Below, piece after piece: positions 3,113 to 55,079 of a stretch of 57,121 bases of DNA (position 1 is its first letter; each line of letters begins with the position of its first letter). Under the pieces are notes generated by a model, which saw only the letters and a program-made list of their open reading frames with translations, had not been told where the DNA came from and did no database searches. Position numbers and translations under genes: made by a program. The stretch spans positions 1-57,121 of the forward strand of contig JAFGHO010000020.1 in the NCBI GenBank assembly GCA_016930085.1, in the 5' to 3' direction. Origin of the DNA: Spirochaetales bacterium (GTDB lineage Bacteria; Spirochaetota; Spirochaetia; SZUA-6; JAFGRV01).

Positions 3113-3862
3113 TTATTTGTAAAACCTGTTCGGGTTGAAGTATTTGTCGTCGATCGGAACATCGTATTCGGCCGCGTTGGTGATGATGACGGTCATGCTT
3201 TCCTTGACGAGGTTCGCCATGATCATCTGCGTCGGCATAAGCCGGTCCCCGACCTTTTTTACTTCCTTCATGATAAGGTCCTTGTAGTGCCCGTCTTCTT
3301 CCGTGTAGTATTCGACCTTTTGAATCAGGTAGTCTTTTTTCCCCACATGGATGACGACCATCGAATATACGGAATCTTTGTCTTTCGGTATTCCCCGGAT
3401 TACCCATTTATCGTTGTAACTTGCTGTAACGGCAAGGCCGTATTTTTCCTCGAATTTACCGCCGCCCATGTCTTCGTATGAGAAATCGCCGCCCACGCCT
3501 TTGACCGATTCCCCCTTTGATTTGGCCGCGATCTTTCGAACGCGTCCCGTCGAGGGGAAATAGACCCACTGGTCGCCGCCCTTTGAAAGAATACTCAGTC
3601 CTTTGATCGTTTTCGGTGTGAGGAAAACCATATAGGAATCCTCGTCCCCTTTGCTGTAGGAAAGCACTTTCATGGAACGGTACGTCTCCTTGTCGTGAAC
3701 ATCGGGGTAGATCAGCATGGTGAGTTCCGTTTTGCTCGAATCCGCATTATGCATCTCTTCCATTTTCCTGATGATCGCGAGTGCGTCCTCTTCCCCGTAA
3801 AAAAGTACCGGCTGAATAAAAAAAAGTATCACACCGATTATTGTTGTTTTGATCTGTTTCAT
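3113..3862 (-). CDS. LolA-like outer-membrane lipoprotein-sorting protein
   Basis: 249 residues. The signal peptide MKQIKTTIIGVILFFIQPVLFYG is followed by EDALAIIRKMEEMHNADSS, the usual start of the LolA-like 'outer membrane lipoprotein-sorting' family (PF17131-type). Family features such as GGDQWVYFPSTGRVRKI and DFSYEDM are present. These proteins are thought to carry lipid or lipoprotein cargo in the periplasm and commonly lie beside MMPL/RND exporters. The start is set at the ATG preceded by AGAAGGAGG, not at upstream codons in the same frame. It lies 17 bases after the exporter gene and is surely in the same operon. Confidence 0.85.
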   Translation of the reverse strand: MKQIKTTIIGVILFFIQPVLFYGEEDALAIIRKMEEMHNADSSKTELTMLIYPDVHDKETYRSMKVLSYSKGDEDSYMVFLTPKTIKGLSILSKGGDQWVYFPSTGRVRKIAAKSKGESVKGVGGDFSYEDMGGGKFEEKYGLAVTASYNDKWVIRGIPKDKDSVYSMVVIHVGKKDYLIQKVEYYTEEDGHYKDLIMKEVKKVGDRLMPTQMIMANLVKESMTVIITNAAEYDVPIDDKYFNPNRFYK

Positions 3863-34262: not shown

Positions 34263-35843
34263 TCAGCCGGCAAACCTGAATATGATCTGAATCATACCGA
34301 TCAACGCCCCCAGGATCGCGCCGAACACGTTTATCCATTTGAGTTGTTTGGCGATCACCATGAGGATGAGTTTTTCGACCTCCGAGACATCAAGCGCGTC
34401 GATCTTGTTCACCACGATGGTCTTGATATCCAGGCTCGAAAGGAGATCCGGCAGCTTTTCGTCAAGAAGGCCGATGAGGTTGTCGAAAATGAAACGGTCC
34501 AGCGCAGCTTTTGTCTCCGCATCGAGATCCAGTATCTCGGCCAGCGGGCGGTCTTCCATGCTTTGCAACAGCGAGGTGATGAGTTTCACCACCACCTGCG
34601 ACAATACCTCCGCCGTTTCGGGCCGCGTGAGTGTTTTTGTGACGAATGATTGTATTGCCAGAACGATATCCTCTTCACTGACAGCCAGCTGTTTTTCCAG
34701 TATTTCCTTTATTGTTTTATCCTTTTGTCCGTCGATGAATGAAGTGATATTGGAGGCGATGAACGCCTCCGTTTTTCCGCTTTTCAGAATGGAGAAGAGG
34801 TTTTCCGCCACGAGCCGTATCTTCGCATTGATATCGATTGATTCCGAATAGAAAAGATCGAACACACCCTGTTTGAGCCATCTGTGCATTCCCTTCTTCG
34901 AGGATTCGATAAAATGAGTCTGATTGACGGGATCCTTTGCGGCTTCCTCGATATAATTGAGCGCATCGTCGATGATTTCGGGCATTTTTTCCGCCAGGGT
35001 CTTGTCGTACTGGGCGACGGACACGACGATCTGCTGAAAGATATTGAGTTTTTTAAAAATTTCCTTGAGAAGTTCCCTTCCCTGTGTTTCAAGGTCCTTT
35101 TTCGTATATTCGGAACGCAGCCAGATAAACAGAGAGGCAAGCAGATCGGGAAGAAAAAGCCTGAAACTCGTAACGGCGGCATCGACCAGATCCGCTGGAA
35201 TAATATCTTTCAGAGGGGTGTTTTTTGCAAGCTGGTTGTTCGTCCATTCGGTGATTTCCTGAAGCAGCCATGCCCGTAATTTTTCACCGGTTAAAAAAGG
35301 AAGGAGGTAAGCGGTGGTTATCGCTTTTATATCGATTTTTTCCGTGACGGCGGAGAATTTCCGGCCGGTAAACGACCGGACGAAATCTCCCGTCATGGAA
35401 GCGATCCCCTCTCCGACCTTTCCCGAAGAGAAGAAGGAATGAAGGGCCCCCGAAAGAAACGACTCGATATAATCGTAGACCACGGCGAATTTTCTGCTTT
35501 TGAGAATAGCGACGGGGGAGTCAAGGATATGTTCCGTCAAATTCGAGATATTGAGGTAAAGGCTTTCACGGAATGCCTGGTTTGCGATATGGTTTCTGAG
35601 CGCCTCCGTGGTGAGAAGATTTCTGGAAACCATGTTCCCGATACTGTCCGCAAGCTGATGCCGCTGTTTCGGGATGATACCGGGTGTGAACGGTATCCTG
35701 ATGCCGAACACCCGCTTTTCATGCAGCGGCCGGAAAAGCATTTTTATCGCCACCATATTGGTCACATAGCCGATAATCGCCCCGAGAAGGGGGGGGAGGA
35801 TCCATGGAAGAAGCCGGATGATGGTGTCGGTGAATGCCGTCAT
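34263..35843 (-). CDS. DUF445 (YheB-like) membrane protein
   Basis: 526 residues. It starts with a helix (LPWILPPLLGAIIGYVTNMVAIKMLF) and the family mark RPLHEKRVFGIRIPFTPGIIPKQRH, runs through a long helical region of about 430 residues, and ends with a second helix (NVFGAILGALIGMIQIIF). DUF445 proteins are anchored at both ends of a helical stalk; in Bacillus the YheB relative affects spore or envelope properties. The exact role is unknown. It is the last gene after the cohesin lipoprotein and SH3 lipoprotein, 102 bases downstream of the latter. Confidence 0.88.
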   Translation of the reverse strand: MTAFTDTIIRLLPWILPPLLGAIIGYVTNMVAIKMLFRPLHEKRVFGIRIPFTPGIIPKQRHQLADSIGNMVSRNLLTTEALRNHIANQAFRESLYLNISNLTEHILDSPVAILKSRKFAVVYDYIESFLSGALHSFFSSGKVGEGIASMTGDFVRSFTGRKFSAVTEKIDIKAITTAYLLPFLTGEKLRAWLLQEITEWTNNQLAKNTPLKDIIPADLVDAAVTSFRLFLPDLLASLFIWLRSEYTKKDLETQGRELLKEIFKKLNIFQQIVVSVAQYDKTLAEKMPEIIDDALNYIEEAAKDPVNQTHFIESSKKGMHRWLKQGVFDLFYSESIDINAKIRLVAENLFSILKSGKTEAFIASNITSFIDGQKDKTIKEILEKQLAVSEEDIVLAIQSFVTKTLTRPETAEVLSQVVVKLITSLLQSMEDRPLAEILDLDAETKAALDRFIFDNLIGLLDEKLPDLLSSLDIKTIVVNKIDALDVSEVEKLILMVIAKQLKWINVFGAILGALIGMIQIIFRFAG

Positions 35844-35945: not shown

Positions 35946-36338
35946 TTACAAAAGGTCCTGGGCATAGGTTCCGGCATCTTTTTGGGAATTGAATATGACC
36001 ATATACGCACCGAATACCCACCCGCGGTCCCCGTCAAAGGTGATGTGGTACCAGTAGTCGGTCTTGTCTTCAATAACGGATTTTTCCTCTGTTTTGGATA
36101 TTATTTCCACGATCATCCCCCGCGGAATTCCCGTCAGCATCCGGGCCTGTTTTGACGGGCGTTCCCGCAGCCTGAGAAAATTACTCGTCACCACACCCCA
36201 TGTGGTACGTGAGGAAAGCACCGACGTGGGGGGGAGGGTGATCGTTTCCACTTCCGCCTCCCTTCCGCAGGACAGACCGCACAGGGTTATACACGTGAAG
36301 ACAAGAAAATAAAGCATGGATTTGTGCATAATCTTCAT
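35946..36338 (-). CDS. Lipoprotein with bacterial SH3 domain
   Basis: 130 residues. The signal peptide ends LCGLSC (lipobox, Cys near residue 24). A Thr/Pro-rich spacer leads to a bacterial SH3 domain (about 49-117; VTSNFLRLRERPSKQARMLT, then WYHITFDGDRGWVFGAYM). Such domains often bind peptidoglycan peptides. The ATG lies six bases after the cohesin lipoprotein stop, so the two are one operon. A nearby in-frame ATG three codons later is equally possible. It may help hold the system at the cell wall. Confidence 0.82.
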   Translation of the reverse strand: MKIMHKSMLYFLVFTCITLCGLSCGREAEVETITLPPTSVLSSRTTWGVVTSNFLRLRERPSKQARMLTGIPRGMIVEIISKTEEKSVIEDKTDYWYHITFDGDRGWVFGAYMVIFNSQKDAGTYAQDLL

Positions 36339-36344
36339 TACCCC

Positions 36345-38131
36345 TTATTTAACCGTTACACGCGCACTGATGCCGCGTTTGTTTCCGATCGGATCCGTAT
36401 TTGCATCCGTCAGGTCCTTGACCGTCACGCTGATCGTCGCGGTGCCCGTCCCGACGGCCGTCCAGTTGAGTCTGAGGAGGTAGAGATCCTCACCCGGCCC
36501 CTTTCCCGACGTATCGAATCCACCTATAACAAGCCTGCCCGGCGTGAGATTGACGGCGGCGACGAATCCCTGGGGTCCCGCTTCCACTCCCTTGTTGCCG
36601 ACTCCGGTATTGACATTGAGGATGCCGGAATCGAATCCGATTTCAATTCCATATGCCGCGATTTTCTGATTCCCGCTGTTCACGTGCACTTCGTTCGAAA
36701 ACCTGGCCCCCATACTGACGGAACCCGATGCCGGTTCGATCCAGACTTCTCCGGTGCCGGGCGCCGCGGGGGCGGGAGCGGATGTCGCTTTGGGACTGGG
36801 AGAAGGGGAAGGTGTATCCGTCGGCGTCGGAGAAGGTGTCGCCGTCGCGGTAACAACGGGAGGCGCCGTGGGCGCATCGGTATACACGGGTTCCTCATAA
36901 TACGCGTCTGTCCGGCGGGGAGGGCCGGTCGGCGCGTCCGTCTTTCCGGCGTTGCCCGGGCCGGGCGGCTGCGTCGAATAATTATCTTCATATGGCGGTT
37001 GATCGTCGTTACCGTATTCATCATAATCCCGGTAATCGTCGTCATTCCGCGCGATATACTCATCTCCGGCATTCTCTTCCCATACCCCTTCCCCGTCATT
37101 GCCGGGCTGATTGTCGCCGCCGTATTGATTGTCATACCCTGATTGGCTTTGGTAATCGCCCTGATTGCCGTTTGCAATCAGGGCTTCTTTCGTGTCCGCG
37201 ATCCCGACCACCCCTTCGATGCTGAATGGTTTTTCGAACAACGCCTTTTTTTTGCTTTTCACCTCGATCAGACCGATTTTGAGCGTCGAAACGCCCGGTT
37301 TGAGGGCGATGAAGTGAATGGAAAGCAGATGTACGTCCGGAAGCGGCCCGATGCCGTTCCCGGACGTCCCTTCGACGGTCAGGTATCCTTCCTCTTTTGC
37401 ATCCACCGATAAGGAAAAATCCCCGATCCCCATCGTGATACCCTTCTCCCCTTTCCCGGCATCGGGTTTCATCAATTCTTTCGGATAGGAAACAATAATG
37501 TCAAAGGAAGTCAGTTTTTCGCTTCCGGTATTGAGATGCAATGCGGTTGAAAAGGAGTCGTTCTTTTCCGCAATGAGATAGTTCGGCTCGAGCCACGCAT
37601 GCTTCCCGCTTTTTTCCGCCGCCGGAAGCCGGAGAGAAATTCCCGTTTTTTCCGGCTTTTTTACAATACCCGTTCCGGTAGGTTCAGGTTTCGGCTTTTC
37701 TTCGACGGGAGGTTTCAGGACGATTTCCTTCAGAACGATGTTGACGACGACTTCATTCGAATAGATGGATCGTTTTTTATCCTTGAAGGCAAACGCCCTG
37801 TATGCATATGTGGTGATGTCGTCCGTTATTGCCGTATCTTCGTAGTCCCGTTCGGATTTGCCGCGAGAAACGATCTCCCGGAATCCCTCCGTTTCATCGG
37901 TTTTTTTTTCGATGATAAAACCTTCGATATCGTCTTCTTTTCCTTCCCATTTCCAGCTTAACCGTATGGTATTGTCTTTTGTAAATAGGGCGGAAAGGTT
38001 ATACGGAAAATTGAGGTTTTGCGGATTCACATCCTTTGTGGGACAGGTAAAAAGCAGCAAAAGGAGTGTAAAAAAAAAAGGAGGATTGTGGGGAGTGTTA
38101 CGACAACGATTTTTTTTGGATCGATTTCCAT
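36345..38131 (-). CDS. Cohesin-like surface lipoprotein (FnIII + two cohesin-like modules), reading frame broken by one base in the signal peptide
   Basis: The main frame (571 residues from a TTG at 38060) holds an FnIII domain (about 18-110), a cohesin-like module (155-290), a long linker rich in Asp, Tyr, Asn, Gln, Pro and Thr (295-435) and a second cohesin-like module (438-571), each with a beta-sandwich pattern such as AAYGIEIGFDSGILNV and a Gly-rich GGFDTSGKGPGEDLYLLRL. It begins with LLFTCPT, the end of a lipoprotein signal peptide. The rest of that signal (a basic start, then a long hydrophobic run) is encoded from an ATG at 38131 but one base out of phase; adding a single T to the run at 38070-38079 joins them perfectly. 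A promoter lies just upstream. It leads an operon with the SH3 lipoprotein. Confidence 0.72.
38070..38079. repeat. Run of ten T (coding strand) in the cohesin lipoprotein signal sequence
   Basis: Ten consecutive A on the plus strand, read as ten T in the mRNA sense, inside the hydrophobic part of the signal peptide. The ATG at 38131 and the body of the protein are out of phase by one base; eleven T would join them into an intact lipoprotein signal with a lipobox. The simplest biological reading is slipped-strand phase variation or transcriptional slippage. A sequencing or assembly error must be excluded. A second run of eight (38109-38117 region) lies nearby. Confidence 0.75.
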
Positions 38132-38175: not shown

Positions 38176-38205
38176 ATTATATCACGATTTCCCCAATCAT
38201 GTCCA
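38176..38205 (-). promoter_or_regulatory. Predicted promoter of the cohesin lipoprotein operon
   Basis: On the minus strand TGGACA (38205-38200) and TATAAT (38181-38176) are 18 bases apart. Transcription would start near 38169, about 38 bases before the ATG at 38131. This supports the ATG as the intended start even though its frame is out of phase with the body. Confidence 0.5.
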
Positions 38206-53315: not shown

Positions 53316-55079
53316 ATGAAAGAGATTAAAGTCGGACTCGCGACGTGCGGCATATCCGCCGGGGGTACGGCGGTTTTCAATGAATTCAAACAACAGGTAT
53401 CGGAAAAAAATCTCCCGGTCTCACTCAGGGAAACGGGGTGCATGGGTATGTGTTATGAGGAGGTGCTGGTAGAGATTATCGAGAACGGTTCCCGGTACCT
53501 TTACGGGAGTGTGACGCCGGAAAAGGTAAAACGTATTGTCGCCGAACACATCATCGAAAACAAGCCGGTATCCGAATGGATCGTCCGGGGTCCGGATTCC
53601 GGAGAACAAACGGATTTTTTCAGGAAACAGAAACGTATCGTCCTCAGGAACTGCGGCGATATCGATCCCGGTAACATCGACGAATATACCGCACGCGGCG
53701 GGTACAATGCGATCCGGATGGTATTGTCGTCATTGAGTCCTGAGGAGGTTATCGGAACAATACTTGACTCCGGACTGAGGGGGAGGGGGGGGGGCGGTTT
53801 CCCGACTGGACTGAAGTGGCGGTTCGCTCGTCAGGCCGAAGGCGATAAAAAGTATATTATCTGTAATGCCGACGAGGGGGACCCCGGTGCCTTTATGGAC
53901 AGAAGCGTTCTCGAAAGCGATCCCCATTCGGTACTCGAAGGGATGATGATCGCCGCTTTTGCGATCGGTGCCGAGAAAGGCTACATTTATGTCCGTGCCG
54001 AATACCCAAGGGCGATCGAACGCCTTCGCCGTGCCATTGGTGAGTGCGGGGCCAGGGGCTATCTCGGGTCCCGAATCCTCGGTTCTCCGATGAATCTCGA
54101 TATCGTCATCAAGGAAGGAGCGGGGGCGTTTGTCTGCGGCGAGGAGACGGCACTCATTGCTTCGATCGAAGGGAAACGGGGGGTTCCCCGGCTCAGGCCG
54201 CCATTTCCCGCACAAAGCGGGCTTTTCGGTAAACCGACAAACATCAATAATGTGGAAACATACGCGAATGTCCCGTGGATCGTTGTCAATGGGGCGGAAG
54301 CTTTTTCCCGTCTGGGATCGGAAAAAAGCAAGGGAACAAAGGTCTTCGCTCTGGCCGGAAAAATCAAACGAAGCGGACTCGTCGAAGTCCCGATGGGTAT
54401 CACGATCAACGAGATCGTCTTTGATATCGGCGGCGGAATAAGGGACGGCAAGGCTTTCAAGGCGGTGCAAATGGGCGGTCCGTCGGGCGGGTGCATACCG
54501 GCCTCGATGGGCGAACTCAGAATCGATTACGACGAAATTACAAAAACCGGCGCAATCATGGGTTCGGGAGGTATGATCGTGCTTGATGAAACGACCTGCA
54601 TGGTCGATGTGGCAAGATATTTTCTCACCTTTACCCAGAACGAATCGTGCGGAAAATGCACCTTTTGCAGAATCGGAACAAAGCGGATGCTCGAGATTCT
54701 GGAAAGGATAACCTCCGGGGACGGCAAAGAGGAGGACCTCGATATCCTCGAAGACCTGGCGCAAACGATAAAGCGGAGCAGCCTTTGCGGTCTTGGTCAG
54801 ACCGCGCCGAATCCCGTCCTCACCACACTCCGGTATTTCAGGGACGAGTATATCGCCCATATCAAGGAAAAGAGGTGTCCGGCGCACAGCTGTCCGCACC
54901 TGATTACCTACAGGATCGACCCGGAAAAATGTACGGGCTGTACCCTCTGTGTAAAACGGTGTCCATCGGGCGCCATAGCGGGAGAAAAAAAGAAACCGCA
55001 CACGATTGATCCGGACAAATGCATTAAATGTGAATTGTGTTATGACGCATGCCGCTTTCATGCGGTGATCAAAATATAG
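53316..55079 (+). CDS. nuoF: NuoF/HydB-type NADH-binding subunit with extra ferredoxin domains
   Basis: 587 residues. An N-terminal [2Fe-2S] thioredoxin-like domain (about 1-85; ATCGISAGG, ETGCMGMC) is followed by the FMN- and NADH-binding core (LRGRGGGGFPTGLKW, NADEGDPGAFMDRSVLESDP, GEETALIASIEGKRG). The [4Fe-4S] site is ESCGKCTFCRIGTKR with a later Cys. The C-terminus adds two ferredoxin clusters (CTGCTLCVKRCPSGA and CIKCELCYDACRF), which ordinary complex I NuoF lacks. This is the form seen in bifurcating hydrogenases and Stn-type complexes. The start is the ATG after GAGGAG. It lies between NuoE and the large subunit. Confidence 0.94.
   Translation: MKEIKVGLATCGISAGGTAVFNEFKQQVSEKNLPVSLRETGCMGMCYEEVLVEIIENGSRYLYGSVTPEKVKRIVAEHIIENKPVSEWIVRGPDSGEQTDFFRKQKRIVLRNCGDIDPGNIDEYTARGGYNAIRMVLSSLSPEEVIGTILDSGLRGRGGGGFPTGLKWRFARQAEGDKKYIICNADEGDPGAFMDRSVLESDPHSVLEGMMIAAFAIGAEKGYIYVRAEYPRAIERLRRAIGECGARGYLGSRILGSPMNLDIVIKEGAGAFVCGEETALIASIEGKRGVPRLRPPFPAQSGLFGKPTNINNVETYANVPWIVVNGAEAFSRLGSEKSKGTKVFALAGKIKRSGLVEVPMGITINEIVFDIGGGIRDGKAFKAVQMGGPSGGCIPASMGELRIDYDEITKTGAIMGSGGMIVLDETTCMVDVARYFLTFTQNESCGKCTFCRIGTKRMLEILERITSGDGKEEDLDILEDLAQTIKRSSLCGLGQTAPNPVLTTLRYFRDEYIAHIKEKRCPAHSCPHLITYRIDPEKCTGCTLCVKRCPSGAIAGEKKKPHTIDPDKCIKCELCYDACRFHAVIKI

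What the first reader, a model, noticed from the sequence alone, without database searches (positions are those of the whole stretch)
38058..38131. One-base phase break at a T10 tract splits the cohesin lipoprotein signal peptide
From ATG 38131 the sequence encodes a basic start and long hydrophobic stretch. The lipobox and mature protein are in another frame, and adding exactly one T to the ten-T run joins them into an ideal lipoprotein signal. A promoter with TATAAT sits 38 bases upstream. This is what is expected for contingency-locus phase variation or for transcriptional slippage of a surface protein. A homopolymer sequencing error would look the same.
Basis: partly seen in the sequence, partly recalled or inferred. 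Interest (0 to 1): 0.8.

Follow-up and report, generated by a model that had tools for sequence, protein, structure and literature searches.

The report
Conserved slippery T-run splits lipoprotein signal
In three species of environmental spirochaetes a gene for a probable surface anchor protein is stably written out of frame at a run of nine or ten Ts inside its export signal, so the protein can be made only if RNA polymerase, the ribosome or DNA replication slips on that run.

Summary
On the minus strand, ATG 38131 opens a basic, hydrophobic signal start. A T10 tract (38070-38079) puts it one base out of phase with the lipobox Cys (38043-38045) and a 566-aa mature protein (FN3-like domain plus two cohesins). 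Orthologues occur in four of the five genomes held of this spirochaete family. Two species of another genus carry the same break at the same place (T9, then TAA), needing the same shift (+1 base, or -1 by the ribosome). A fourth has T8 and an intact, in-frame signal that aligns with the joined peptides. Synonymous sites are saturated between all pairs, yet the mature protein is under purifying selection and the pre-tract ATG frame is conserved. In 1.65 Mb sampled from the three genomes this gene is the only credible broken signal; other T9 tracts and A9-A11 runs inside genes leave the frame intact. Assembly error and pseudogene are therefore very unlikely. Best explanation: programmed transcriptional slippage at T9/T10, as in Shigella mxiE; a -1 ribosomal shift gives the same protein, and DNA phase variation remains possible. 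These genomes hold 127-150 dockerins each, so the protein probably anchors a cellulosome-like system.

The parts
38176..38205 (-). Promoter: TGGACA (38205-38200), 18-nt spacer, TATAAT (38181-38176), 44 nt before the ATG
   Evidence: 11 of 12 consensus matches; TGGACA with a TATATT/TATTAT box 17-18 nt on also precedes the G002 and G004 genes
38027..38131 (-). ATG-frame (zero-frame) ORF of 34 aa: basic start and hydrophobic stretch of the signal peptide, then out-of-frame residues to TGA
   Evidence: pre-tract ATG frame conserved in orthologues (BLOSUM62 total 160 against 59.5 and 54.5 for the other frames)
38070..38079 (-). T10 tract (A10 on + strand): slippery site where the frame must change by +1 base or -1 ribosomal step
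   Evidence: T9 at the same place and phase in G002 and G004, T8 in frame in G003
38043..38069 (-). Second half of the hydrophobic core and lipobox TLLLLLFTC in the mature frame; Cys codon 38043-38045
   Evidence: FTC conserved in all four orthologues
36345..38045 (-). Mature lipoprotein, 566 aa: FN3-like domain, cohesin 1, low-complexity linker, cohesin 2
   Evidence: pN/pS about 0.4 between G002 and G004
37713..38012 (-). FN3-like N-terminal domain, specific to these orthologues
   Evidence: weak Pfam fn3 hits, below the cut-off; alignment A1; all-beta in the model
37197..37598 (-). Cohesin 1
   Evidence: alignment A2; cohesin hits in the G003 orthologue
36348..36746 (-). Cohesin 2
   Evidence: Pfam Cohesin E 0.008 in the window copy, best 1.6e-13 among orthologues; the model matches solved cohesins, e.g. 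2jh2_A TMt 0.81 (which of the two domains aligned was not checked)
37901..37909 (-). A9 run (in mRNA) inside the same gene that does not break the frame: internal control
35946..36338 (-). Downstream SH3-domain lipoprotein, 6 nt after the stop; same order in all four genomes
34263..35843 (-). DUF445 membrane protein, conserved neighbour

Best explanation
The gene encodes a cohesin-bearing lipoprotein, probably a cell-surface anchor for dockerin-bearing enzymes. Its signal peptide is split between two frames by a conserved recoding site. RNA polymerase starts at the TGGACA/TATAAT promoter, reaches T10 (T9 in the sister genus) about 100 nt downstream and slips on the rU:dA hybrid, so that part of the mRNA carries an extra U (or loses two). 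Only those messages join the basic ATG start to the second half of the hydrophobic core, the lipobox and the mature protein. The rest give a short hydrophobic peptide of 20-34 aa. Slippage efficiency would thus set how much anchor reaches the envelope. Shown here: the break, its conservation at the same site and phase in three species of two genera, an intact in-frame version in a fourth, purifying selection on both sides, and its uniqueness in the sampled DNA. Inferred: that the slip happens during transcription, its efficiency, lipidation, surface location and enzyme anchoring.
For: Same break at the same site in G000 (T10), G004 and G002 (T9 then TAA); ATG-to-Cys distances are all 2 mod 3, and 0 mod 3 in intact G003. 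Joined peptides align with the intact G003 signal: a Pro 13-15 residues before Cys, FTC at the end. The pre-tract ATG frame is conserved, the other frames are not. Synonymous sites saturated, pN/pS about 0.4. No other credible broken signal at A/T runs of 9 or more in 0.85+0.53+0.27 Mb; other T9 tracts in signal peptides are in frame, and the other complete cohesin proteins sampled from these genomes show in-frame signal regions. T9 to T10 lies in the range where bacterial RNA polymerase slips, with a bias to poly(T) and to insertion in E. coli (PMC6260861); mxiE T9 is the precedent, and a conserved 9T run with a conserved shifted extension has been proposed as the mark of purposeful slippage (PMC1088944). 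No conserved RNA structure that would point to classic -1 ribosomal frameshifting.
Against: No RNA, peptide or read data. A -1 ribosomal shift on U_UUU_UUU/U_UUU_UUA yields the identical protein. T9/T10 tracts are also replication-slippery, and only three tract-bearing species are known, two of one genus, so a shared OFF state by chance or descent is not excluded. Tract length is not identical between genera (10 against 9).
Confidence: 0.52

Rival explanations
1. Phase variation: replication slippage changes the DNA tract length, so that a few cells are ON and most OFF. The assemblies show the majority OFF state.
For: A homopolymer early in the coding region of a surface lipoprotein is classic contingency-locus anatomy; M. 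fermentans p78 (poly-A, surface lipoprotein) is a named precedent (PMC3711429). The tract length differs between genera (10, 9).
Against: All three tract-bearing species are in the same one of two OFF states despite saturated synonymous sites, and none is ON; by simple chance that is about 2 in 27 for three lineages and weaker if two share it by descent. Other cohesin lipoproteins in the sample show no broken tract.
Confidence: 0.22
2. Programmed -1 ribosomal frameshifting on the U-run (U_UUU_UUA in the window, U_UUU_UUU followed by UAA in the sister genus), giving the same joined protein.
For: The heptamers are in the correct phase in all three genes and a zero-frame stop follows at once in two. 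Ribosomal recoding on homopolymers is documented, e.g. atpB (PMC8254509).
Against: No stable or conserved downstream structure (z -1.4, -0.1, -0.3) and no Shine-Dalgarno-like stimulator seen upstream; the run is longer than ribosomal slipping needs but matches the length RNA polymerase needs.
Confidence: 0.15
3. Homopolymer sequencing or assembly error; the real gene is in frame.
For: A missing base in a homopolymer looks the same in a single assembly; read data were not available.
Against: Same site and same phase in three separately assembled genomes, two of them public MAGs of another genus; A10 and A11 inside other genes of these genomes lie in open frames; A9 in the same gene is in frame.
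Confidence: 0.04
4. Decayed pseudogene.
For: The ORF has no working signal as written.
Against: More than 560 codons open in four species, pN/pS about 0.4 at saturated synonymous divergence, conserved promoter and neighbours.
Confidence: 0.03
5. Translation starts in the mature frame at a rare codon, or a shift happens earlier at the A-run (A_AAA_AAG / A8), so no slip at the T-run is needed.
For: An aligned ATT occurs in that frame in G002 and G004; A_AAA_AAG or A8 is in -1 phase near the start in all three.
Against: No such start codon in the window copy before the tract. The A-run join gives poorly hydrophobic signals (mean hydropathy 0.14, 1.53, 0.95 against 2.67, 3.03, 1.64) and aligns less well with intact G003, clearly in G000 and G004, only slightly in G002.
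Confidence: 0.04

Closest known systems
Shigella flexneri mxiE (transcriptional slippage at T9)
   Same: Run of nine T/U; one added base joins two overlapping ORFs into the functional longer protein
   Different: mxiE encodes a transcription activator and the join is in its body; here the join is inside the signal peptide of a lipoprotein of an environmental spirochaete, and slippage has not been measured
Citrobacter rodentium / Yersinia tssM (A11 transcriptional frameshifting)
   Same: Homopolymer restores an interrupted cell-envelope gene; both products needed in C. rodentium (PMC4256274)
   Different: Poly-A before the last domain of an inner-membrane protein gene; demonstrated by experiment
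[quoted passage not shown]
   Same: Homopolymer frame break in a surface lipoprotein gene (cited in PMC3711429)
   Different: DNA-level ON/OFF switching is established there; here no length variation has been seen or could be looked for
Blochmannia/Buchnera frameshifts kept at poly-A and corrected by polymerase slippage
   Same: Frame breaks kept and corrected in 12-50% of transcripts (PMC5009743)
   Different: Reduced AT-rich endosymbionts; here one gene in a 5.4-Mb genome of about 47% GC
Cellulosome anchoring scaffoldins (cohesin proteins such as OlpA/OlpC of Clostridium thermocellum)
   Same: Cohesin modules on a surface-bound protein, many dockerin proteins in the genome
   Different: Lipoprotein signal in a spirochaete with an FN3-like domain; binding not tested

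Membership tests
Programmed transcriptional slippage sites | A/T run of about 9 or more at the frame junction | tested here: met
   T10, T9, T9
Programmed transcriptional slippage sites | Run and shifted extension conserved among homologues | tested here: met
   Three species of two genera with the same offset; extension under purifying selection; run length 10 or 9
Programmed transcriptional slippage sites | mRNA with heterogeneous run length from homogeneous DNA | not testable with these tools
   No RNA or read data held
Programmed -1 ribosomal frameshifting | Slippery heptamer X_XXY_YYZ in phase | tested here: met
   U_UUU_UUA (window), U_UUU_UUU (G002, G004)
Programmed -1 ribosomal frameshifting | Downstream RNA structure or upstream stimulator (usual, not universal) | tested here: not met
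   No significant or shared fold
Contingency-locus phase variation | Homopolymer in the coding region whose length sets the frame | tested here: met
Contingency-locus phase variation | Tract length varies between cells or strains, with ON and OFF states seen | not testable with these tools
   One assembly per species; all three tract-bearing species OFF in the same phase, the T8 species in frame
Bacterial lipoprotein | Basic n-region, hydrophobic core and lipobox Cys in one precursor | tested here: met
   Only after the join in three species, directly in G003
Bacterial lipoprotein | Canonical lipobox [LVI][ASTVI][GAS]C | tested here: not met
   LFTC/IFTC with Thr at -1 in all four orthologues; lipidation is therefore inferred, not established
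Cohesin (PF00963) | Cohesin domain by profile or fold | tested here: met
   Orthologues over the cut-off, best E 1.6e-13; window copy alone below it (E 0.008); model matches solved cohesins
Cellulosome anchoring scaffoldin | Binds dockerins and holds them on the cell surface | not testable with these tools
   Only genomic context: 127-150 dockerin hits in the genomes that have the gene, 1 in G001, which lacks it

The most novel reading that the evidence does not exclude
A conserved slippage site placed inside a signal peptide acts as a built-in valve that sets how much surface cohesin anchor a spirochaete with a very large dockerin repertoire makes: polymerase slippage gating protein export and cellulosome-like assembly.
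Probability: 0.4. Interest if true: 0.7.

Novelty: new member of a known kind. Interest (0 to 1): 0.58.

Why it matters
If true, ordinary gene calling loses the start and signal of this lipoprotein in every affected genome, and the case adds a recoding site kept under selection in free-living bacteria, at an unusual place: the hydrophobic core of an export signal. It would give a directly testable link between polymerase slippage and the amount of surface-bound enzyme machinery, and the intact T8 relative is a ready natural control.

Tried and rejected
Single-sequence scan of genome contigs with the window protein found nothing; the alignment query worked. No phage match. No orthologue of the N-terminal domain elsewhere in the order (26 genomes). 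The UvrB tree did not resolve the order of genera within the family, so whether the break is ancestral or arose twice is open. A stimulatory structure for ribosomal shifting or for slippage was looked for and not found. H. pylori fapH/hp0838, surfaced by a text search, turned out not to describe a T-tract break. Rare starts and a shift at the A-run were considered and disfavoured. The structure model is modest (mean pLDDT 54), so only the cohesin matches were used.

Full report
WHAT IS THERE. On the minus strand, ATG 38131 opens a frame reading MEIDPKKIVVVTLPTILLFF and then leaves the reading frame of the gene at ten T (38070-38079), ending at 38027. The other frame carries TLLLLLFTC and a 566-residue protein to 36345, with no usable start before the tract. 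A one-base gain at the run, or a one-base backward step of the ribosome, joins them as MEIDPKKIVVVTLPTILLFFFTLLLLLFTC|PTKD. The promoter is TGGACA-18-TATAAT, 44 nt before the ATG.

RELATIVES SETTLE THE ERROR QUESTION. The gene exists in four of the five genomes held of this family, and its N-terminal domain was not found elsewhere in the order. G002, G003 and G004 correspond to the Spirochaetales MAG contigs JAFGQK010000318, JAFGWI010000170 and JAFGRV010000068 (contig lengths and positions agree). In G004 the ATG frame reads MDTDLKKLLFIVTPVLLVFF and stops at TAA right after T9; in G002 it reads MSINIDVKKTLFLVTPLFVFF and also stops at TAA right after T9. In both, the lipobox frame (LILFLIFTCQPT, LSLYLIFTCQPT) is reached by the same shift as in the window. 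The ATG-to-tract distance is 52, 52 and 55 nt, the same codon phase, and the ATG-to-Cys length is 2 mod 3 in all three. G003, a third genus, has T8 and is in frame: MNRNNLVMIISPIIIILFFIFIIFTCQ. It shows what the joined signal looks like: a Pro 13-15 residues before Cys and FTC at the end.

SELECTION. All pairs are saturated at synonymous sites; G002 and G004 have pN 0.30 and pS 0.74 over 564 codons. The segment before the tract is conserved in the ATG frame (summed BLOSUM62 score 160 over six pairs) and not in the other two frames (59.5, 54.5). Both sides of the break are therefore coding and functional together. A pseudogene would have decayed at this distance.

IS IT A GENOME-WIDE HABIT OR AN ASSEMBLY HABIT? 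I scanned 0.85 Mb of this genome, 0.53 Mb of G002 and 0.27 Mb of G004 for A/T runs of 9 or more that separate an ATG-led start from a long frame. The scan lists several mechanical candidates; judged by eye, the only credible broken export signal in each genome is this same gene. Other T9 tracts, including some in signal peptides (L061:13861, L097:2810, L135:7040), are in frame, and A10 and A11 runs lie inside open genes. The other complete cohesin proteins sampled, lipoproteins among them, show in-frame signal regions. Only part of each genome was scanned.

MECHANISM. Runs of about 9 A or T make bacterial RNA polymerase slip; E. coli RNA polymerase prefers poly(T), and insertion outweighed deletion at the runs measured (PMC6260861). 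Shigella mxiE uses a run of U in this way, and a conserved 9-base run with a conserved shifted extension has been proposed as the mark of purposeful slippage (PMC1088944). I therefore favour transcriptional slippage. The ribosome could give the same protein, because U_UUU_UUA or U_UUU_UUU is in phase, but no stimulator was found. Phase variation at the DNA level would need length mixtures that cannot be seen in consensus assemblies; against it stands that all three species are in the same OFF phase, for it that the tract length differs by one between genera. That count is small and two species share a genus, so the preference is moderate. The UvrB tree leaves the four genera unresolved, so the age of the break relative to the intact G003 copy is unknown.

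WHAT THE PROTEIN DOES. The mature part has an FN3-like domain (weak Pfam hits) and two cohesins (solved cohesins match the model). The four genomes with the gene hold 127-150 dockerin hits each (the search scores at most 150 candidates), while G001, which lacks the gene, has one dockerin and no cohesin. An anchor for dockerin-bearing enzymes is the natural inference; it was not tested. Slippage would then set the dose of this anchor. The gene is followed by an SH3 lipoprotein and DUF445 in all four genomes; if they are co-transcribed, early termination of translation in unslipped messages could also lower them, as slippage in mxiE affects its downstream gene (PMC5009743).

VERDICT. Real, conserved, and very unlikely to be a sequencing error. 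Most likely a new member of the known class of homopolymer recoding sites, in an unusual position.

Noticed in passing
G000, G002, G003, G004 (whole genomes); window genome 5.36 Mb: Very large dockerin repertoire (148, 127, 142 and 150 hits, with at most 150 candidates scored) and many cohesin domains in this spirochaete family, including proteins of about 990-1900 aa with 3-10 cohesin domains; G001 of the same family has one dockerin and no cohesin. A cellulosome-like system in spirochaetes.
   Followed up: partly
window 53785-53794 (+): G10 tract, the longest G/C run in 0.85 Mb of this genome, but in frame: it encodes part of GRGGGGFPTGLKW in a NuoF-like flavoprotein subunit. Ordinary.
   Followed up: yes
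window 38110-38117 (-): A8 run near the start of the same gene (A6 with A_AAA_AAG in the orthologues), also in -1 slippery phase; a shift there would give poorer signal peptides.
   Followed up: yes
L074 (G000 C18), T12 at minus-strand offset 3429-3440 of the locus: T12 tract just upstream of a long frame, listed by the scan as a possible break; it looks like upstream non-coding sequence, since an ATG follows about 26 codons later.
   Followed up: partly
L038 (JAFGHJ010000002, candidate division WOR-3 MAG): A cohesin-bearing protein related to this one (43% identity in the best segment) in a WOR-3 MAG from the same Zodletone series; shared domain family, gene transfer or mis-binning.
   Followed up: no
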